A stretch of 64,000 nucleotides of DNA from Phycisphaerales bacterium. Its GTDB lineage: Bacteria > Planctomycetota > Phycisphaerae > Phycisphaerales > UBA1924. The DNA is taken from NCBI GenBank assembly GCA_905339235.1, contig CAJPFG010000005.1:1-64000 (forward strand), read 5' to 3'. How positions within the stretch are numbered: position 1 is the first letter of the stretch; each line of letters starts with the position of its first letter. The notes below the pieces were generated by a model, which was given only the letters and a program-made list of their open reading frames with translations, was not told the origin of the DNA and searched no databases. Shown piece after piece: positions 6,519 to 15,286 of this stretch. The translations under genes and the position numbers were made by a program.

Positions 6519-7673
6519 TCAGTACGTGCACCGCTTGCGGAGCGAGTCGCGGCCTTCGGGGCCCGCCGCCGCGAGGATGGCCGCGATTCGTTCTCCCGCG
6601 TTCCCCTTGCCGAAGGGATGGGCGTGCGGGCCGCGCAGCGTGCGGGCTTTGGAGACCGCGGCACGCACGTCTTCCGCGCCTTCGCGTTCCACGTGAATGA
6701 CATTTCCGCAGCGCTCGCGCCCCGCCTGGCGACGCCCGACGTCCACCGCCGGAAGCCCGATCGCCGCCGCCTCGATCAAGGCCGCCGAACTGTTGCCGAC
6801 CATCACCCCCCCGCCGCTCGCCAGGCGCTTGAGCACGCCGACAAACTGCGCCCGTGGAAGGTGCGCCCGTTCCACGACGCCCGTCGCGCCGAGAATCGCG
6901 CGGAGCGTGCCGTCGCGCCCCGGATCGAGGTTCGGGTGCAGCGCGAGCACACGCGCGCCGGAGAGTCCTTCGAGCACCTGCGCCGCCGCGGCCTCTTCCG
7001 TCTCGTCGTCGCGCCCGATCGGGTGCATCAGGAACAGCACGGTGGGCGAGCCCAACTCCGCGAACGCGGTGTCGTTCAGTGATGTGATCGCCGCCAGATC
7101 GTCGATCGCGGGCGATCCGACCACATGCACCCGCGCCGGGTCCTCGCCCATCCGCAACAGACGCTCGCCGCTCGCCGCCGTCGCGGGGAAATGCAGGTGC
7201 GCCATCTTGGAGATCGCGTGGCGCATGGCCTCGTCGGCGACGCCCTCGGCCCGGTCCCCGCCGTGGATGTGCGCCAGCGCGAACCCGCCGATGCCCGCGG
7301 CGGCCGCGCCGGCGAAGGCCTCGATGCGGTCGCCCAACACCACGACCCAGCCGGGCTTCAGTTGCTCAAACATCCGCCCGAAGCGCGACACGCCGATGCC
7401 CACGGCCTCGACATCCGCCGCACGGCCGGTACGGCCGGCCACCTGCATGGGGATCGCCGCGGCGATCAGGAACTCCTTCTTCACCTCGTGATACGTCAGC
7501 CCCGGCGACACCAGGTGCGACCCCGCGGCGATCACGGCGAGTTCCAGATGCGGATGCTTCTCGACGGCCTTCATGACAGGCCGCAGCAACCCGAACTCGG
7601 CGCGCGAGCCGGTGACGACCGCGATGCGGGTGCGGGTCTGCTGGGACGGTGGAAGGTCAACGGGAACGGTCAT
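6519..7673 (-). CDS. neuC: UDP/GDP-sugar 2-epimerase (hydrolysing), NeuC/LegG type
   Basis: A 384-residue GT-B-fold epimerase that would release a 2-epimerised amino sugar (ManNAc or its diacetamido analogue) from the nucleotide sugar, the first step to nonulosonic acids. Near the N-terminus it has IAVVTGSRAEFGLL, the NeuC signature. Further on are VLGDRIEAFAGA, HIHGGDRAEGVADEAMRHAISKMAHLHF and VGNSSAALIEAA, all characteristic of the family. Expression with neuB and neuA upstream in the same direction supports the pathway. Whether the substrate is UDP-GlcNAc (sialic acid) or a GDP-linked diacetamido sugar (legionaminic acid) cannot be decided from sequence. The start at 7673 lies inside the end of a degenerate antitoxin reading frame. 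Confidence 0.88.
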   Translation of the reverse strand: MTVPVDLPPSQQTRTRIAVVTGSRAEFGLLRPVMKAVEKHPHLELAVIAAGSHLVSPGLTYHEVKKEFLIAAAIPMQVAGRTGRAADVEAVGIGVSRFGRMFEQLKPGWVVVLGDRIEAFAGAAAAGIGGFALAHIHGGDRAEGVADEAMRHAISKMAHLHFPATAASGERLLRMGEDPARVHVVGSPAIDDLAAITSLNDTAFAELGSPTVLFLMHPIGRDDETEEAAAAQVLEGLSGARVLALHPNLDPGRDGTLRAILGATGVVERAHLPRAQFVGVLKRLASGGGVMVGNSSAALIEAAAIGLPAVDVGRRQAGRERCGNVIHVEREGAEDVRAAVSKARTLRGPHAHPFGKGNAGERIAAILAAAGPEGRDSLRKRCTY

Positions 7674-7889
7674 CGCGAGTGGGATAGGGCCCGGTGGAGC
7701 GGAAGTTCATGGCTCGAACGCCTTCCTCAAACCTCCTCATGGCTTGCTCACGTTGCTCGGGCGTGGGGGTGGAGGGCGATTCGACCGTCAGCCGGACTCT
7801 CTCGTGCTCGCGCAGGTTGAGCCACTCTGGGGCCGCAACACCCCATTCTCATAGACCGCTTCAACAACTTGCTTGCCTCGCGACACCAT
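7657..7889 (-). pseudogene. Frameshifted DUF104 (AF2212-like) antitoxin remnant
   Basis: Between neuB and neuC the minus strand reads MVSRGKQVVEAVYENGVLRP, then runs to a stop after 14 more codons. Shifted by one base at a CGGCCCC tract, the frame continues as PEWLNLREHERVRLTVES. Together these make the hallmark of DUF104/UPF0165 antitoxins (EAVYENGVLRPL...L.E.ERVRLTVE). The second frame continues through a charged helix and ends at 7657, overlapping the neuC start by 17 bases. One inserted base would restore a protein of about 77 residues. Such antitoxins normally precede a PIN-domain toxin; here the next gene is neuC, so the toxin is missing. A homopolymer sequencing error is the alternative explanation for the frameshift. 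Confidence 0.65.
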
Positions 7890-7898
7890 GCGCCAATC

Positions 7899-8951
7899 CT
7901 AGGCCGAGGCCTCCTGGTTTAGCCTCAGGTGAAAGGGCCGCAGCGGCATATCGGATTCGAGCGGGGCGAGCAACGTTGCCCCCACCACCCGATCAAGTTC
8001 ATACGGGGGCAAGCCCGTTCCGGGTCGCTTGATGGTCAAGTCCCCCCCTGAGATCACCGTTCCTGCGGGCAACTCCCTCTTTGCCACGAGCGACTGTCGC
8101 GAAACCGTCCGAACGTCCTGCTCAATCCCGAGCACACGCTTTTCGCTGTGTATTGGAAGGCGTCGCGGTGACGCACCGGCACTCACATAGCGACTCATCA
8201 TCGCCGGTTCCAGAGACGCCGCGTGATCCGGCCCGCGCCTGGTGCGATCGTCCGTGAAGTGCTTCTCCAGCACGCACGCCCCGGCGCCGACCGCCAGGCT
8301 CGACATCCGCTCGGACCTGGTGTGATCGCTGTACCCCACCGGCCCGTCAAACATCGAGCGAAGGACCGCGATACCCCCCAGTTCCGCGTCCGACTCCTCG
8401 GTGGGGTAGCAACTCACGCACTGGAGCAGCGCCAGCCGGTCGTGAATCGGTGCGAGCCACTCGACCGCGCGCACCACTTCCTCCAGAGTGCTCGCCCCGG
8501 TGCTCACGATCAGCGGCTTCCCCGTTGCCGCCATCGCGTCCAGGAGCGGCTTGTTGATGATGTCCGGGCTCGCCGACTTGTACGCATCCCACGGCAGACG
8601 CTCCGCCACCGGGACGAGTTCCACGCTGAAGACGCTCACGATCGCGTGAACGCCTAGGCGGTGCGCCTCCCCTACGCAGGGCGCGAGATCGTCGATCGAG
8701 AGTTCCAGCCGCCGCAGCATCTCGACCGGGTCGCTCTCACCCGCGGCCTTCTGGTACGCCGCGAGTTTTGCCGCACGGCTCATCAGCCGGTCGGCCTCGA
8801 ACAACTGGAACTTCACCGCGTCGGCCCCCGCCTCGGCCGCGAGGCGCGTGAGTTCCAGTGCGCGATCCCGGGAGCCGTCGTGGTTTACGCCGATCTCGGC
8901 GATGACATACGGCGGGTGACCCGTCCCGATCTCGCGAGCGCCGATCTTCAT
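7899..8951 (-). CDS. neuB: N-acylneuraminate (nonulosonate) synthase
   Basis: Condenses phosphoenolpyruvate with ManNAc or a related 6-deoxy diacetamido sugar to form the nine-carbon acid. It has 350 residues, a normal length. The TIM barrel begins with YVIAEIGVNHDGS and contains DAVKFQLF, YKSASPDI, STGASTLEEV, CVSCYPT, PVGYSDHT and EKHFTDD; the His residues of the last two fit the family's metal site. The C-terminal ~65 residues (from VAKRELPAGTVI) form the SAF/antifreeze-like domain. Its ATG overlaps the neuA stop as ATGA at 8948-8951, indicating translational coupling. Confidence 0.95.
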   Translation of the reverse strand: MKIGAREIGTGHPPYVIAEIGVNHDGSRDRALELTRLAAEAGADAVKFQLFEADRLMSRAAKLAAYQKAAGESDPVEMLRRLELSIDDLAPCVGEAHRLGVHAIVSVFSVELVPVAERLPWDAYKSASPDIINKPLLDAMAATGKPLIVSTGASTLEEVVRAVEWLAPIHDRLALLQCVSCYPTEESDAELGGIAVLRSMFDGPVGYSDHTRSERMSSLAVGAGACVLEKHFTDDRTRRGPDHAASLEPAMMSRYVSAGASPRRLPIHSEKRVLGIEQDVRTVSRQSLVAKRELPAGTVISGGDLTIKRPGTGLPPYELDRVVGATLLAPLESDMPLRPFHLRLNQEASA

Positions 8952-9667
8952 CGAGCGCCTCCCCGCAGTACGGCATCGGCAACGAGGAAATCGGCCTCAG
9001 AGTCGATGTCGATGACGCTGCCTTCGGGGTTGATCACGCCGCGTCGGTCCTTGCCGAAGAACGCGTGGGGGCCGGGGGCGACACCGAGAATATCGAGCAT
9101 GAGCGCCGCCCGGGTCAGGGCGATCACGCCGCCATCAGGGATGAACGCCGGCGGAAGATCCTGGCGGCGAAAAATGCCATGGTTCAGGACGTCACCTTCC
9201 CACGGCCGCACCTGGCCATCCTCGGATAGCCGCGCCGTCCACCACGGGTGGTGCTTTCCGACCGGTTGGTAACTCTGAACGCTGTCGCCGCCGCGTTCGA
9301 GCAGGTTCACCGCGCGGTCGATGAGGTCCGCGGGACGTACCGGAACATTGGCGTACAAGATCACCCAGAGCGAGCCGGGCTCACCGGCGGGCGCGGTCTG
9401 ATGCGCGGCGTGCCGCGCGGCGTCGTCCACGCGGGCCGAGTCGGTGGCGAGATCGATCGGCCGGTCTACGACATCGGCGCCCATCTCGCGGGCCACGGCC
9501 GCGGCCCGAGCATCGTCGGTCGAAACCACCACCCGAGATACACAGCGCGAGCGCAACGCGTGGTCGATCGTCCACGCGATGCACGGCCGCCCGGCGACCT
9601 CGCGCACGTTCTTCCCCGGCACCCCCTTGCTCCCGGAACGGGCGAGGATGATCGCGATGGCGTTCAT
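8948..9667 (-). CDS. neuA: CMP-nonulosonate (N-acylneuraminate) cytidylyltransferase
   Basis: Activates the nonulosonic acid with CTP so that it can be transferred. The 239-residue protein starts at 9667 with MNAIAIILARSGSKGVPGKN, the nucleotide-binding signature. VVSTDD follows near residue 50, and a run of GVINPEGSVIDIDSEADF near the end fits the metal-binding end of the family. The start overlaps the stop of the Maf fusion gene (ATGA at 9664-9667) and the stop overlaps the neuB start, so the three genes form a tightly coupled operon. Confidence 0.94.
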   Translation of the reverse strand: MNAIAIILARSGSKGVPGKNVREVAGRPCIAWTIDHALRSRCVSRVVVSTDDARAAAVAREMGADVVDRPIDLATDSARVDDAARHAAHQTAPAGEPGSLWVILYANVPVRPADLIDRAVNLLERGGDSVQSYQPVGKHHPWWTARLSEDGQVRPWEGDVLNHGIFRRQDLPPAFIPDGGVIALTRAALMLDILGVAPGPHAFFGKDRRGVINPEGSVIDIDSEADFLVADAVLRGGAR

Positions 9668-12600
9668 GCCCGCGCCTCCGCGAGTTGCTCGGCTTGGATC
9701 GGCGATTGTGTCCCGCGAGAATCGAGCAGGACTCTCGACCACTCCATCCGTCGTCGCGCCGGCGCCGGAAGCGGGAGCGGCTCGATTCGGGCTCCATCGA
9801 TCGCGCGGGGAAGCGGATCGATCACGCACGCGCCGCAGCCGAGAAGCCATCGGTTGTAGAACGATTCGACCTGTTCGAATACCTCGTCGCGGCGCGTGAT
9901 TCTCGGCACCACCCACGGGCTCGGCCACGCGCGGTTCCGCTCGCCCCCGCAGGGCCGTTCGAGAGATCGGTTCACCAGCCGCGCGAGTTCGCTCCGGGCG
10001 GTGTCAAAGCCCTCGCGATCCGTGATCGCCAGGTACGCCGTGGCGCTCTCGGCGAGCAAGTCCACGCTCACGACATCCGCGAGCGAGAGTGCACGCCGGT
10101 CCGCGCTCCCGGCACGAGTCAGAGCCGTGCGAATATGGACCGCCGCGGCCCCCCACGCCTTCGCGCTCGCGACCAGTTCGGTCAACCCCGGTACGTCGAG
10201 CACATCACAGCCGTCGCCGACGAACGTGACGGCGGGCGAGTCGCCAGACCCGATCGCGTGCCGGAGTTCCAGCCCCGTCAGGCCGCGCGGAGAGTCAAAG
10301 CGCAGCCGCATCGTCACCGCCTCGACGGGCCCATCTTCGAAGAGGCCCGCGGCCCGCAGCGCCGCGGCGATCTCCGCGGCGCCGGCGTCGAGCACGCGAT
10401 CGCCGAGCGGTCGGAGCGCTTCCGCGAGCCGCGCGAAGTTCTTGTGCGTATCGGGGATGCACCGCATCAAGGCGTCTCGCACCGACGGGGGCACCGAAAC
10501 GCACGCGGGCTTGGCGATGGGATCGCCCTGCGGGGCCACCGGGTGATATCCCAGCAGCGCCCCCACCGTCGCCCCCGAGCCGCCGACGCGCGCCATCTCC
10601 TCGACCACGCTCCGCGCGAGCAGGCATCCGGCCAGTCCGGGCGCGGCCTGCGTAAACGTCATGGCATTGCCGTCGGGACGCTCTTCGTGCCGCTCGATGA
10701 CCTCGTCGATGAGGCGAGGATCGGCGAGCGCCCAGTCGGCCCCGAGAACAACGGCCGCGTCGATGCCGCGCGACACCATCTCCGACGCCAGCCCCGGCGC
10801 GTCGAGCACCTCGTCGTAGCAGGAGAGATTCGCCAGCCCGCCGCGCCAGCAATGACGAGCCCACGCGCGCCCCGCGGCGACACGCGTGGCGGTTTCTGAG
10901 TGCGAAGCCGATGTCCGCGTGAACTCAACCCGCAGGCCCGTGGGCGTGTGGCCCGCGATCGCCTTCGCCGCGTCGATGTTGAGGCAGTGGAGCAGCACCC
11001 CCTCCAGCCGCGCGCATCGCGCCAGCCGCGCGAGCAGGAGTTGCAGCGGATTGTGCCCGAGCAGGAATGGGCGTGAGAGATCGCGAGAGATGCCGAGCCC
11101 GCCTCGCTCGTGATCCACAAGCACACACGCCCACACGCGCCGGCGCGGGCCCGCGGAGCCCGTGCCCGCGTGAGGCACCTCGCGCGTGCGTGCCTTGCCG
11201 GACTTGAGCGCGACCAGCGCCTCGTCGAGCATCCCCGTCACGAGCGTCGCGGCGTCCGCCAGCCAGTTGACGTTGCGGATGTCCCGCTCGATCTCCTTGC
11301 GCTGACGGTCGAACCCCGAGAGCGTGTCATCAACTCCGATCGCACGGTCCGCCTTGTAGCGGTTGAGTTGGCCGGTCTGGTTGATGTGCTGCACGAGCCA
11401 GTAGGCGGGGCTCTCCGCGGCTTCCACCCCGATCTCGTTCACGCGCGCGATCAGTTCGTTCACGCGGGCCTGGTCGCTCTGGTCGGCGAGCATCTCGCGG
11501 AGCACCCCCTCGGCCCGCCGGCCCAGTTCGGCGATGCGACCGGCCCCGCGCCGGAGTTCCTGGAACCGTGCCTCCAACTCGCGCAGCCGCGGCGCGGCGG
11601 GGATCGGGGTCGGGCCGTTTGCCCGGGCGGGGCGATCTCCGCGAGGATTGTTCCCGTACATCTCCAGCGCCTTGGCCAGCGACATGACGGTCGCGTGCTG
11701 CTTTCGCACGCCGCCCTCGGTCGCGTCGATGGTTGTAAACTGGCGCTCTTTGTCGCGGAGGAAGTCGCGCTCGAACTGCACGAGGTACGTGCTCATCTGC
11801 TCATCGGTGTAGATCTCGCGCCCGTGCACGTCGGTCGCCTTGCGGAGCAGACTGCGCATCCGCGCGATCCGTTGCCACTCCAGCATTTCGAGCGTGTTGA
11901 ACTCGTTGAGTTCGCCGGCCCACACCTGGTGGATCGCCGCGCCCGGGCCGTAGTACTGGCCGTCGGTAAAGCCCAGGTCCTGGCCGACGAGAATGACCGG
12001 GTCGCACCCCAGGTGCCGCGCCAGGTAGTACGCCAGGTGCGCGACCGTCGCGCCCGGCTGAATGCGTCCCATCTCGCGGTGCAGCGCGGGACCGAGGATC
12101 TTGTCGGAGGTGTCGTCGCCCACGCAACGGATCTTGCCCGGGAAGGCCTCGAGAATCGCCGGATTCGCCTTGGGCTCCACCACGAGCGTGACGCCCTCGA
12201 CGTCTCCGGCGGTGAGTCCTTCGTAGAAACGCGCGCTGATCTCGTGATAGTCCAGCGCGGTCACGTAGTCGGGCCGTATGCCCCGGGCGAGCAGTTGCTT
12301 GAGCACGGTCTGCACGGCGATCACCACCACGCGCTCGCGGAGTTCCGGACGGGCCAATAGGTCGATGTTGCGGCGCAAACTCGGCCCGGCGGCTACCACG
12401 ACCGCGGGGCGTCCGCGCTGCGACCCGACCAACTCCGCGACGCCGGGCACGGTGGCGTACCACCGCGCGTTCTGGAGCAGGTTGCGCACCGTCACATCGA
12501 CCTGCACCAGCGTGGTCACGACGTTGGTCCGCACCGCCTTCATGACATTCGCAAAGGCCGCGGCGAAGCGGTCGCGCGCGACGCCCAGGCGCGCCACGCT

Positions 12601-13125
12601 CGGGGGGTGATCCAGGAAAACCGTTCCCGTGGCGAGCACCGCCTCGATGCCGCGGGTGGCCTCGGCAATCGACCCGGTATCGTCAGGATCGGTCAGCAGA
12701 ACGGCGCCGCCGGGGCGCAGCCAGGCGGTCATGTCCACGCGCTCCAGCAGCGCGCGCAGCAACGCAACATCGGGCTCGAAGACCACGATCGCGCCGTGCT
12801 GCTTCAGCCGGCGCGCCAGCGCCGCCACGTGATGGCCCAGGCCCAGGCCCATGACCACGACCGCCGCGTTGGCGAGCACGTCCACCCCGGCCGCGAGTTT
12901 CTCGCCCTCCGCGATCGGCCCCCGGCGGCTGGCGAGTTGCCGGGTTACGCCCGCACGCGCGAGCGTGCCCGTGACGCCCCCGTCATCGGCGATGGTCAGT
13001 TCAACGGACGGATCGGCGGATGCGTGACGGATCGCCGCCGCCGCGCGGGCGCTGCGAACTCCCAAGGCGCGCAGGTTCCCTTCGAGAACCCGCGGATTGG
13101 CCGGAATGGTCGCGCTCCTTGTCAC
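9664..13125 (-). CDS. Maf/DUF115 glycosyltransferase fused to SpsF-like and degenerate radical-SAM-like region
   Basis: This is a 1153-residue protein. The N-terminal half matches motility-associated Maf proteins (DUF115/MptE-like), which move nonulosonic acid from CMP to flagellin. It shows VVMGLGLGHHVAAL (about residue 90), VVVAAGPSLRRNIDLL (about 240), TALDYHEISARFYEGL and VGQDLGFTDGQYY. A helical section (about 480-650) follows. From about 660 the sequence resembles SpsF-type nucleotidyltransferases (a GHNPLQLLLARLARC segment). The last 180 residues end in SPWVVPRITRRDEVFEQVESF, resembling the end of radical-SAM enzymes, but no CxxxCxxC cluster motif is visible, so that part looks non-catalytic. 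I chose the GTG at 13125 because GGAGAA precedes it and longer starts run into the divergent gene's promoter. First gene of the neuA-neuB-neuC operon. Confidence 0.8.
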   Translation of the reverse strand: MTRSATIPANPRVLEGNLRALGVRSARAAAAIRHASADPSVELTIADDGGVTGTLARAGVTRQLASRRGPIAEGEKLAAGVDVLANAAVVVMGLGLGHHVAALARRLKQHGAIVVFEPDVALLRALLERVDMTAWLRPGGAVLLTDPDDTGSIAEATRGIEAVLATGTVFLDHPPSVARLGVARDRFAAAFANVMKAVRTNVVTTLVQVDVTVRNLLQNARWYATVPGVAELVGSQRGRPAVVVAAGPSLRRNIDLLARPELRERVVVIAVQTVLKQLLARGIRPDYVTALDYHEISARFYEGLTAGDVEGVTLVVEPKANPAILEAFPGKIRCVGDDTSDKILGPALHREMGRIQPGATVAHLAYYLARHLGCDPVILVGQDLGFTDGQYYGPGAAIHQVWAGELNEFNTLEMLEWQRIARMRSLLRKATDVHGREIYTDEQMSTYLVQFERDFLRDKERQFTTIDATEGGVRKQHATVMSLAKALEMYGNNPRGDRPARANGPTPIPAAPRLRELEARFQELRRGAGRIAELGRRAEGVLREMLADQSDQARVNELIARVNEIGVEAAESPAYWLVQHINQTGQLNRYKADRAIGVDDTLSGFDRQRKEIERDIRNVNWLADAATLVTGMLDEALVALKSGKARTREVPHAGTGSAGPRRRVWACVLVDHERGGLGISRDLSRPFLLGHNPLQLLLARLARCARLEGVLLHCLNIDAAKAIAGHTPTGLRVEFTRTSASHSETATRVAAGRAWARHCWRGGLANLSCYDEVLDAPGLASEMVSRGIDAAVVLGADWALADPRLIDEVIERHEERPDGNAMTFTQAAPGLAGCLLARSVVEEMARVGGSGATVGALLGYHPVAPQGDPIAKPACVSVPPSVRDALMRCIPDTHKNFARLAEALRPLGDRVLDAGAAEIAAALRAAGLFEDGPVEAVTMRLRFDSPRGLTGLELRHAIGSGDSPAVTFVGDGCDVLDVPGLTELVASAKAWGAAAVHIRTALTRAGSADRRALSLADVVSVDLLAESATAYLAITDREGFDTARSELARLVNRSLERPCGGERNRAWPSPWVVPRITRRDEVFEQVESFYNRWLLGCGACVIDPLPRAIDGARIEPLPLPAPARRRMEWSRVLLDSRGTQSPIQAEQLAEARA

Positions 13126-13247: not shown

Positions 13248-13931
13248 ATGAACACGATTCCCGACCTTCTCCCCAACACTCCCCCACCACTTTTGCTCCT
13301 GGCCCAGGGACCGTTGGCGATTCCCGACCCCGCACCGCTCCCCGCTTCGCCATTCCTGTCAAGGATGCTGCTGGAATCCCCCTGGCCGGTGGTGCTGCTC
13401 CTGGCGATCGCGGCGGGGTTGTGCTGGATCGTCCTCTCCAACCGCGGCAATTCGGCGCGCGCGAGAGGATCCTGCGGCCTGCTCCTCGCCCTTGCGGTCG
13501 GGGTCCTGGTTCTCGCTTCGGCGATCACGACGGGGCGGGAGGCCGTGCGCGAAGCGGCGAAGCAACTTGTACGCGACGTGGCGGCGGCCGATGTACCGGC
13601 GTTACGCTCCGCGCTGGCCTTCGAGTGCGTGCTTCGCCTTGCTTCCAACGGGCCTGAACTCGACGCGAGTGAGATTCTCGATCGGGTCGAGCGGGACTTC
13701 TCCGACCGCGGCCCATTCAAGGTGAAGGAGTACGGCATCCTCGAAACCCAGAGCGCCGTGTACGACGACGGGTTGGCGAGCGCGCAGATCAAGGTTCGCG
13801 TGACCGCCGAGTCGGGAGGATTGCTGCTCTCGTGGTGGCGGGTGGACTTCCGCCCCGAGGGCGGCCGGTGGCGGGTCGTTTCCATCCGGATGCTCTCGAA
13901 CTCGGCGACCGGGGTGGGCGGGCTTCCCTAG
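13248..13931 (+). CDS. Hypothetical membrane protein with extracytoplasmic domain
   Basis: It encodes 227 residues starting MNTIPDLLPN. Two hydrophobic segments are visible, near residues 43-65 (WPVVLLLAIAAGLCWIVL) and 75-95 (CGLLLALAVGVLVLASA). An alpha/beta domain follows (about 100-225) that includes EYGILETQSAVYDD and WWRVDFRPEGGRWRV, reminiscent of SnoaL/NTF2-like folds, but I cannot assign a family. It is divergent from the Maf fusion gene and 47 bases upstream of a glycosyltransferase, with which it may be co-transcribed. I do not recognise a function. Confidence 0.7.
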   Translation: MNTIPDLLPNTPPPLLLLAQGPLAIPDPAPLPASPFLSRMLLESPWPVVLLLAIAAGLCWIVLSNRGNSARARGSCGLLLALAVGVLVLASAITTGREAVREAAKQLVRDVAAADVPALRSALAFECVLRLASNGPELDASEILDRVERDFSDRGPFKVKEYGILETQSAVYDDGLASAQIKVRVTAESGGLLLSWWRVDFRPEGGRWRVVSIRMLSNSATGVGGLP

Positions 13932-13978: not shown

Positions 13979-15286
13979 GTGCGAGTCCTGGTGCTCCTCC
14001 AACCCGGCGCCAACTCACGCTCGATCTTCCTCGGGCTGGTCCGTGGCCTTGCGAAGGCCGGACACGAGCCGCTCGTACTCGAACTCGCGCCATTCTGGGA
14101 GGCGCTCAACAGGCCGGGCGCGCCGCGCTCGCGCGTGATGACCGAGTCCGCCGCGGTGCTGCGGGAGTTGGTCGTCCGGCACCAACCGGACGCCTCCATC
14201 GCGATGTGGGGGAACGCGCTCACGACCTTCGCCGGTGGCGCGGTCGAAGGCGCGGCGCGATCTGTTTTCGGCATGCTCGACCTCCCCCACTGCTGCTGGT
14301 GGCTGGATGCGCCGCACTGGGCCGCGGAGGGATCCTGGGCCGCGCACTTCGGCAACCCGATGCTCCGCTGCCCGTCGCTGGTGCATGCGGTCAACAACGC
14401 TTCGACCGCGCGGGAGATGACCGAGGTGCTCGGATTCGGCAGATCGGTCGCCATTCCTTACGCCGTGGACGAAGGCACCTTCCGGCCCCGAGACGAGCCG
14501 CGCCGGTACGACCTTGTCGCCTCGTGCGGCCCCGGGGATCCGCCGCCCACCGACCGCGCGCTGCGCGAACTCGAACGCGACGAGCCGGACATGGAGGGCC
14601 TGCGCCGTGAGGCCGCGGCCCTCGCCACGTCGCGCCTCGACGAGGCCGCGCCCCACGCACTCAGACCGCTGCTGCGCGAACTTCTCGCGTCGCAACTGGA
14701 AGAACGTCACGCGCCGATGCTCGATCGGCTGGACACGATATCCGTGCGGAGCGGATTCGCCGCCGAGGCGGCGCGGACTCTGCTGGCGGATCCGCGCCTG
14801 TACGTTCGGGCGACGGCTCTTATCCGCTCGGTCGAGGCGCACGAGCGAGCGTTCACCATCGCGTGGCTCTCACGCCGCTTCAACGTCGCCGTCTTCGGCG
14901 CGATGTCGGATCGGTGGCCGGTCCATGGCGACCGCCTGGGCGAGATTCCCTTCGAGGAAATGGCGCGGGTGTATTGTCGCGCCGCCGCGTCGCTCAACGT
15001 GATGCGATGGCAGGACGATGTCGGGATCAACCTCAAGCCCTTCGAGATCGGCGCGTGCGGCGTGCCGTGCCTCATGGCGCGGCGGGCGGGCGTGTCGGAA
15101 TGTTTCGAGCCGGGCGAAGAGATCCTCTTGTTCGATGCGCCCCATCAGGCCGCGGCCATGCTCCGATCGCTGCAACGCGACGAGTCGCTCCGGGAATCGG
15201 TGGGACGGCGCGCGCTTTCGCGAATCCGCCGTGAGCACACATGGTCGCACCGTGCCGGGGCGTTCCTCCGCGCGATGACGCGGTGA
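13979..15286 (+). CDS. CgeB-like glycosyltransferase family 1 protein
   Basis: A 435-residue GT-B type protein starting at GTG 13979 (MRVLVLLQPGANSRS). An early DLPHCCWWLDAPHW segment and the C-terminal block SLNVMRWQDDVGINLKPFE...GVPCLMARRAGVSECFEPGEE...LFD match the Glyco_trans_1_2/CgeB family found near flagellin glycosylation and spore-coat genes. The sugar donor is unknown. Its location beside the nonulosonate/Maf operon suggests a role in surface-protein glycosylation (inference). The stop TGA abuts the stop of the convergent dciA-like gene with no intergenic base. Confidence 0.8.
   Translation: MRVLVLLQPGANSRSIFLGLVRGLAKAGHEPLVLELAPFWEALNRPGAPRSRVMTESAAVLRELVVRHQPDASIAMWGNALTTFAGGAVEGAARSVFGMLDLPHCCWWLDAPHWAAEGSWAAHFGNPMLRCPSLVHAVNNASTAREMTEVLGFGRSVAIPYAVDEGTFRPRDEPRRYDLVASCGPGDPPPTDRALRELERDEPDMEGLRREAAALATSRLDEAAPHALRPLLRELLASQLEERHAPMLDRLDTISVRSGFAAEAARTLLADPRLYVRATALIRSVEAHERAFTIAWLSRRFNVAVFGAMSDRWPVHGDRLGEIPFEEMARVYCRAAASLNVMRWQDDVGINLKPFEIGACGVPCLMARRAGVSECFEPGEEILLFDAPHQAAAMLRSLQRDESLRESVGRRALSRIRREHTWSHRAGAFLRAMTR

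What the first reader, a model, noticed from the sequence alone, without database searches (positions are those of the whole stretch)
9664..13125. Maf flagellin-glycosylation protein fused to degenerate SpsF/radical-SAM-like domains, leading a CMP-nonulosonate operon
The gene joins a DUF115/Maf N-terminus (GPSLRRN and TALDYHE segments) to an SpsF-like region and an SPWVVPR...-ending region with no CxxxCxxC. Its stop and the next start overlap as ATGA, so it is coupled to neuA, neuB and then neuC. Seen: the fusion, the overlap and the missing cluster motif. Known: Maf proteins transfer nonulosonic acids to flagellin. Inferred: the C-terminus is a structural or acceptor-binding leftover of an ancestral SpsF/radical-SAM protein, and this operon builds and attaches the sugar.
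Basis: partly seen in the sequence, partly recalled or inferred. Interest (0 to 1): 0.7.

Follow-up and report, generated by a model that had tools for sequence, protein, structure and literature searches.

The report
Flagellin glycosyltransferase fused to pseudoenzyme partner
A bacterial enzyme that probably attaches a sialic-acid-like sugar to flagella is fused to a partner that descends from two joined enzymes but seems to have lost the parts needed for their chemistry; relatives keep that partner as a separate gene next door, which points to an unstudied helper in flagellum sugar-coating.

Summary
The gene is on the minus strand (GTG 13125 to TGA 9664, 1153 residues), joins a Maf half (PF01973, E 5e-36) to a C-half, and overlaps neuA by ATGA. 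The C-half begins with a nucleotidyltransferase fold (best match Leptospira cytidylyltransferase 6oew, Z 19.4) and ends in an eroded radical-SAM/SPASM region. That second identity rests on relatives, since the window's C-half alone hits no family model. In relatives the C-half is often a separate gene of about 550 codons, just after maf in 36 of 44 split loci. None of 84 distinct related sequences has CxxxCxxC in the radical-SAM region. Of 298 class genomes, 155 have the C-half; 152 of these have Maf and 152 have flagellin. The fusion maps to one branch (41 rows, 100/97). Fused rows keep at most one of four SPASM cysteines, while 37 of 44 split rows keep all four. Fused C-halves evolve under purifying selection, so 'leftover' is unlikely. 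Best reading: a pseudoenzyme subunit working with Maf on flagellin. Its action is inferred.

The parts
9664..13125 (-). fused gene: Maf half plus C-terminal pseudoenzyme half (1153 aa, GTG start)
   Evidence: homology with the fused protein of L032 begins at residue 9
11206..13125 (-). Maf half, residues 1-640
   Evidence: NCBIfam FlagModPseD 108-478, 64.8 bits, below its cut-off; 48% identical to the L032 Maf half
11962..12483 (-). Maf_flag10 / MptE-like core PF01973, residues 215-388
   Evidence: E 5e-36, over the curated cut-off
10327..11139 (-). nucleotidyltransferase-fold domain without a recognisable nucleotide-loop signature (residues about 663-933)
   Evidence: (6oew Z 19.4, 220 aligned)
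9826..10326 (-). eroded radical-SAM barrel remnant, no CxxxCxxC (residues about 934-1100)
   Evidence: alignment with stand-alone and fused relatives that hit PF04055; low-confidence part of the model
9667..9825 (-). end of the protein, where stand-alone relatives have SPASM; cysteines and most of the domain lost
9664..9667 (-). ATGA stop/start overlap with neuA
8948..9667 (-). neuA, CMP-nonulosonate synthetase with intact R..GSKG..K-N motif and DID
7899..8951 (-). neuB, nonulosonate synthase (NeuB + SAF)
6519..7673 (-). neuC, UDP-GlcNAc 2-epimerase
   Evidence: TIGR03568 285 bits, cut-off 236

Best explanation
The protein is a flagellin glycosyltransferase of the Maf kind carrying its own partner subunit. 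The neighbouring neuC, neuB and neuA make a CMP-activated sialic-acid-like sugar; the Maf half transfers it to flagellin in the cytoplasm; the C-half is a non-catalytic helper that holds flagellin or the CMP-sugar donor for the Maf half. The C-half descends from a cytidylyltransferase-fold plus radical-SAM/SPASM protein that had already lost the radical-SAM cluster ligands. In a common ancestor of three related families two neighbouring genes became one, and in that clade the SPASM ligands are lost too. Shown by computation: the fusion, its placement on one branch, gene order and overlaps, co-occurrence, ligand loss, purifying selection in fused relatives, nucleotidyltransferase fold. Inferred: co-transcription, that the domain is catalytically silent, that the two halves act together on flagellin, and whether it holds donor or acceptor. 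The donor is the slightly likelier guess, because the fold is that of CMP-sugar synthetases and two Asp positions and an RG...DE motif are kept.
For: Of 298 class genomes, 152 have C-half and Maf, 3 the C-half only, 5 Maf only, 138 neither. Flagellin is in 152 of 155 genomes with and 75 of 143 without the C-half. Of 16 followed-up genomes outside the class, Maf is found in 10 of 10 searched and beside the C-half gene in the other 6; flagellin in 15 of 16. Separate gene downstream of maf on the same strand in 36 of 44 split loci. Fused rows on one branch, 41 of 85, 100/97. dN/dS in 4 fused pairs: 0.10-0.22 (NTase part), 0.06-0.24 (rSAM part), 0.10-0.17 (Maf). Fold. Kept in 41 fused rows: R and G of RG 40 each, D and E of FDE 41 each, GDxP Asp 38, RLxxDT Asp 37. 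Precedents: FlmG has a separate flagellin-binding module (passages, PMC7591256); Maf binds flagellin in the cytoplasm (passages, PMC4065374).
Against: No direct evidence of physical or functional interaction. Two Asp positions of a possible metal site are kept, and many split rows have Arg where NeuA has the loop Lys, so some catalysis is not excluded. Three C-half genomes have no flagellin match (G102, G127, G155), and G102 and G155 keep the C-half with a shortened Maf. In seven loci outside the class no Maf was found in the stretch fetched around the C-half gene, though those seven genomes have one elsewhere; some sit beside unrelated genes. Five class genomes have Maf and no C-half. The window C-half model is of low confidence (pLDDT 59.5). 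The P values ignore shared ancestry. The dN/dS values come from relatives, not from the window's own copy.
Confidence: 0.55

Rival explanations
1. The C-half is a second, active transferase: a GT-A-like enzyme derived from a cytidylyltransferase, which extends or modifies the sugar that Maf attaches.
For: GDxP Asp kept in 38 of 41 and RLxxDT Asp in 37 of 41 fused rows, D and E of FDE in 41 of 41; purifying selection in fused relatives.
Against: The nucleotide-loop Lys is absent: near that place only 1 of 86 aligned rows (L125) has a Lys; Arg stands there in 26 of 44 split but 7 of 41 fused rows, Asp in 17 fused rows including the window. The GDxP Asp is present in only 14 of 44 split rows. No glycosyltransferase-family hit in the 8 C-halves scanned.
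Confidence: 0.2
2. The stand-alone ancestor is an iron-sulfur protein whose SPASM cluster senses or moves electrons, for example to control flagellin modification; the fused clade dropped that function and keeps only docking.
For: All four SPASM cysteine positions kept in 37 of 44 split rows, at most one in fused rows; SPASM hit in 22 of 23 members of A1, which leaves out two split rows (L038, L055) that lack the cysteines.
Against: Three split rows (L038, L055, L127) keep at most one of the four cysteines, and L038 and L055 still lie beside maf; no redox partner was looked for.
Confidence: 0.12
3. One reading: the C-half is an inert leftover hanging on Maf.
For: The window copy has no family hit, unlike 7 of 7 other fused C-halves scanned, and a poorly predicted end.
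Against: dN/dS well below 1 in fused relatives; RG, FDE, the PPG Gly and RLxxDT kept through most of 41 fused rows, the window included.
Confidence: 0.08
4. The Maf-like half acts on something other than flagellin (capsule, S-layer or another surface protein). This is not exclusive of the partner reading.
For: G102 and G155 lack PF00669 flagellin yet keep a version; PF01973 also rings in archaeal control genomes.
Against: 152 of 155 C-half genomes have flagellin, the window's genome among them with 5 matches; flagellin genes lie within about 10 kb of the C-half gene in G300, G499 and G358.
Confidence: 0.1

Closest known systems
Maf flagellin glycosyltransferases (PF01973; Magnetospirillum Maf, C. 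botulinum and A. caviae Maf)
   Same: PF01973 core over cut-off; best PDB sequence match 5mu5, E 0.0009, taken as the Magnetospirillum Maf from memory; gene beside CMP-nonulosonate genes
   Different: carries about 500 extra residues of nucleotidyltransferase/radical-SAM origin; the solved Maf has an N-terminal, a central and a helical C-terminal domain (passage in PMC11339370)
spiro-SPASM proteins (NCBIfam TIGR04321)
   Same: 22 of 23 members of A1 match it, best E 1e-43, and 7 of 7 other fused C-halves scanned match weakly
   Different: below the curated cut-off in 298 of 298 class genomes, where 10 of 14 control genomes also gave sub-cut-off hits; the window C-half does not match; a spirochaete family by its name (recalled)
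Leptospira cytidylyltransferase 6oew and CMP-nonulosonate/CMP-Kdo synthetases
   Same: fold: Z 19.4 over 220 residues, next row 14.6; profile match to NeuA, probability 88.6
   Different: the nucleotide-loop signature of NeuA is not recognisable and a radical-SAM-derived part follows
FlmG of Caulobacter
   Same: a flagellin glycosyltransferase in which catalysis and flagellin binding sit in separate modules of one chain (passages)
   Different: unrelated parts: TPR plus GT-B against Maf plus pseudo-nucleotidyltransferase

Membership tests
Maf (PF01973) | MptE-like/Maf_flag10 core above the curated cut-off | tested here: met
   124.4 bits against 34.6
Maf (PF01973) | Maf N-terminal domain PF20157 | tested here: inconclusive
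   16 bits, cut-off 23.5
Maf (PF01973) | transfers nonulosonate to flagellin | not testable with these tools
   needs mass spectrometry
Flagellin modification protein PseD (NF050051) | score over 670 bits | tested here: not met
   64.8 bits
Radical SAM enzymes | CxxxCxxC cluster motif | tested here: not met
   absent here and from the radical-SAM region of all 85 related rows, 84 of them distinct
Radical SAM enzymes | radical-SAM barrel fold in the window protein | tested here: inconclusive
   no hit by profile and none in the listed fold matches; split relative L034 matches BtrN at Z 17.4
SPASM (PF13186) | cluster cysteines | tested here: not met
   0 of 4 aligned positions in the window protein
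spiro-SPASM TIGR04321 | score over 250 bits | tested here: not met
   no hit for the window C-half; 0 of 298 class genomes over cut-off
CMP-sugar synthetases / CTP transferases | nucleotidyltransferase fold | tested here: met
   Z 19.4 with 6oew, 14.6 with CMP-Pse synthetase 9ftb, on a model of pLDDT 59.5
CMP-sugar synthetases / CTP transferases | nucleotide-loop lysine of the R..GSKG.P.KN type seen in the operon's NeuA | tested here: not met
   Asp at that place in the window; Lys nearby in 1 of 86 aligned rows
FlmG | TPR flagellin-binding module and GT-B domain | tested here: not met
   no such Pfam hit for the fused protein at E up to 1
NeuA/NeuB/NeuC nonulosonate pathway | NeuC equivalog over cut-off, NeuB and cytidylyltransferase Pfam domains in neighbouring genes | tested here: met
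   the NeuB and NeuA equivalog cut-offs are not reached

The most novel reading that the evidence does not exclude
A pseudo-cytidylyltransferase/pseudo-radical-SAM protein is a general second subunit of Maf flagellin glycosyltransferases in Planctomycetota, and through spiro-SPASM perhaps in spirochaetes. It captures CMP-nonulosonate from NeuA and feeds it to Maf, and in the window's lineage it became a permanent domain.
Probability: 0.25. Interest if true: 0.75.

Novelty: new variant of a known kind. Interest (0 to 1): 0.55.

Why it matters
How Maf enzymes recognise flagellin and receive their CMP-sugar is not settled. A partner gene found with Maf in 152 of 155 genomes and then fused to it is a ready experimental handle. 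It would also give a functional hypothesis for the spiro-SPASM family, which no paper in the held library names, and an evolutionary series of a radical-SAM protein that lacks first one and then a second iron-sulfur site while staying under selection.

Tried and rejected
Active radical-SAM enzyme: rejected, no cluster motif in the radical-SAM region of any relative examined. The open frames of 1224 and 1248 codons in G319 and G596 looked like fusions outside the three families; Maf proved to be in another frame, as in G149. PseB or LegB in the window's genome, to name the sugar: sub-cut-off hits only, so a Neu5Ac-like product is a guess. Radical-SAM fold in the window model: none among listed matches, which is no evidence of absence. 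Possible antitoxin remnant between neuB and neuC: one 46-residue stretch gave no Pfam hit.

Literature: nothing on this pair was seen in the listings of searches, and searches returned no paper (open-licence PMC only; searches matched 50, 50 and 44 papers, of which 20, 8 and 10 were listed). Passages of PMC3438082 on Leptospira nonulosonates did not bear on it.

Rows dropped or not seen: L032 is the same contig as L065 and was left out of the tree. Alignment A1 leaves out L038 and L055, two split loci with lost SPASM cysteines, so its 22 of 23 SPASM count is flattering. L001-L031 and L099-L108 repeat places held in longer stretches or are short; L097-L098 are flagellin loci; L129-L132 come. 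Of 155 class genomes with the C-half, 65 (the window's and 64 fetched) were checked for fusion; the other 90 are known only from the listing. Of 17 strong matches outside the class, 16 were fetched; G536 was not.
Full report
OBSERVATION. The gene runs on the minus strand from GTG 13125 to TGA 9664 and encodes 1153 residues. Its stop overlaps the neuA start as ATGA, and neuA and neuB overlap in the same way. neuC follows after 225 bases. The open frame reaches an upstream TTG at 13362, but homology to the fused protein of L032 begins at residue 9 of the GTG version.

MAF HALF AND NEIGHBOURS. Pfam finds PF01973 at residues 215-388 (E 5e-36), and NCBIfam finds the PseD model at 108-478, far below its cut-off. 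It is the only PF01973 match found in this 94% complete genome, which has five flagellin N-terminal domain matches. neuC passes the NeuC equivalog cut-off; neuB and neuA match their Pfam families but not the equivalog cut-offs. NeuA and eight aligned relatives keep R..GS.G..KN and DID. LegB and PseB models give only sub-cut-off hits in the genome, so a Neu5Ac-like sugar made from UDP-GlcNAc is a guess.

C-HALF: WHAT IT COMES FROM. Alone it matches no Pfam or NCBIfam model. A protein search of 298 genomes of its class finds relatives in 155. Fetched loci show that in many genomes the relative is a separate gene of about 550 codons just after maf. Of the 23 members of alignment A1 (22 split proteins and the window), 22 match SPASM, 19 Radical_SAM, 12 NTP_transf_3 and 22 spiroSPASM TIGR04321. 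A1 leaves out two split loci, L038 and L055, which have lost SPASM cysteines. No class genome reaches the TIGR04321 cut-off, and 10 of 14 control genomes also give weak hits to that model. Of seven other fused C-halves scanned, seven match Radical_SAM, four over the cut-off, and seven match spiroSPASM weakly.

FOLD. The stand-alone L034 protein has pLDDT 69.4 and pTM 0.73; the window C-half 59.5 and 0.55. L034 matches Leptospira cytidylyltransferase 6oew (Z 21.1) with its first half and BtrN (Z 17.4) and DesII (Z 17.3) mainly with its second. The window C-half matches 6oew at Z 19.4 (rmsd 2.9, 220 aligned), then CMP-pseudaminate synthetase 9ftb at 14.6; no radical-SAM row is listed. A profile comparison of the nucleotidyltransferase part with NeuA gives probability 88.6.

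WHAT IS LOST AND KEPT. CxxxCxxC is absent from the radical-SAM region of 85 of 85 related rows (84 distinct); the one pattern hit, in L049, is at the SPASM end. At the four SPASM cysteine positions, 37 of 44 split rows have four, 4 have three, 2 have one and 1 has none; of 42 fused rows (window included, L032/L065 counted twice) 37 have none and 5 have one. These counts depend on the alignment. Where NeuA has the loop lysine, Lys is nearby in one row only (L125); Arg stands there in 26 of 44 split and 7 of 41 fused rows, Asp in 17 fused rows including the window. Kept in 41 fused rows: R and G of RG 40 each, D and E of FDE 41, Gly of PPG 41, RLxxDT Arg 40 and Asp 37, GDxP Asp 38; the last is present in only 14 of 44 split rows.

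ONE FUSION. A tree of the first 300 residues of 85 C-halves (41 fused, 44 split) puts all fused rows on one side of a branch with support 100/97, one change of state. Three rows from outside the class (L111, L112, L113) have long branches and unsure places. The fused rows are all 28 sampled genomes of the window's family, the 11 of family f4 that have a C-half and the 2 of family f5; the nearest split rows are families f2 and f3 of the same order. Of the 36 split loci with maf on the same stretch, all have it upstream on the same strand; in 29 the C-half homology begins within 60 bases of the maf stop or overlaps it, and in 7 it begins 65 to 326 bases away. Loss of one stop, with a frame change where needed, is thus an easy route to fusion (inference).

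LINK TO MAF AND FLAGELLIN. In 298 class genomes: C-half and Maf 152, C-half only 3 (G127, G157, G238, all under 88% complete), Maf only 5, neither 138; flagellin in 152 of 155 with and 75 of 143 without the C-half. The P values ignore shared ancestry. In a wider sample of the phylum 67 of 392 genomes match the nucleotidyltransferase profile, many weakly and over short stretches, probably ordinary nucleotidyltransferases. Of 17 strong matches outside the class I fetched 16: Maf is present in 10 of 10 searched and beside the gene in the other 6; flagellin in 15 of 16. In G300, G499 and G358 a flagellin gene lies within about 10 kb of the C-half gene. Against this: in seven loci outside the class no Maf was found in the stretch fetched, some of which end early at contig ends, though those seven genomes have one elsewhere; some of them sit beside RuvB or acetyltransferase genes; and G102, G127 and G155 have the C-half but no flagellin match, G102 and G155 with a shortened Maf.

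SELECTION. In four fused pairs with dS of 0.37 to 1.38, dN/dS is 0.10-0.17 for Maf, 0.10-0.22 for the nucleotidyltransferase part, 0.06-0.24 for the radical-SAM part and 0.08-0.33 for the tail, with region borders set by fixed offsets. Two further pairs were saturated. None of the pairs includes the window, so this is shown for the clade, not for the window's copy.

MECHANISM. Maf of A. caviae acts in the cytoplasm and binds flagellin directly (passages of PMC4065374); the solved Maf structure is described as three domains without such an extra half (passage of PMC11339370). FlmG shows that a flagellin glycosyltransferase can need a separate binding module (passages of PMC7591256). I therefore take the C-half as a non-catalytic partner that holds donor or acceptor for Maf. 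That it is silent, and what it holds, are inferences.

NOVELTY. The parts are known kinds; the pairing, its close co-occurrence and the fusion with loss of the remaining cluster ligands were not seen in print in the searches made (open-licence papers, partly capped listings). New variant of a known kind.

Noticed in passing
L038:7066-8958, L039:7407-9179, L040:6032-8557, L076:7086-9098: neuA and neuB homologues lie in one open frame (NeuA-NeuB fusion) in the three family f2 loci fetched and in one f4 locus.
   Followed up: no
window 7674-7898: Between neuB and neuC, frames on the minus strand read like a frame-broken DUF104-type antitoxin (resemblance recalled); one 46-residue stretch gave no Pfam hit.
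   Followed up: partly
L093:4086-7298 and L128:5038-7542: Genomes G102 and G155 have no flagellin match, yet keep a fused gene whose Maf part is shortened or diverged.
   Followed up: partly
L112, L113, L111: Flagellin genes lie on the same contig within about 10 kb of the stand-alone C-half gene in G300, G499 and G358.
   Followed up: partly
L114:3316-8422: In G324 two Maf-like genes flank the stand-alone C-half gene on the same strand.
   Followed up: no
window 13979-15286: A glycosyltransferase gene (Glyco_trans_1_2, E 6e-30) is encoded on the plus strand, upstream of and divergent from the fused gene.
   Followed up: partly
L121, L122, L111: Outside the class some stand-alone homologues sit beside acetyltransferase or RuvB/phosphatase genes rather than maf.
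   Followed up: partly
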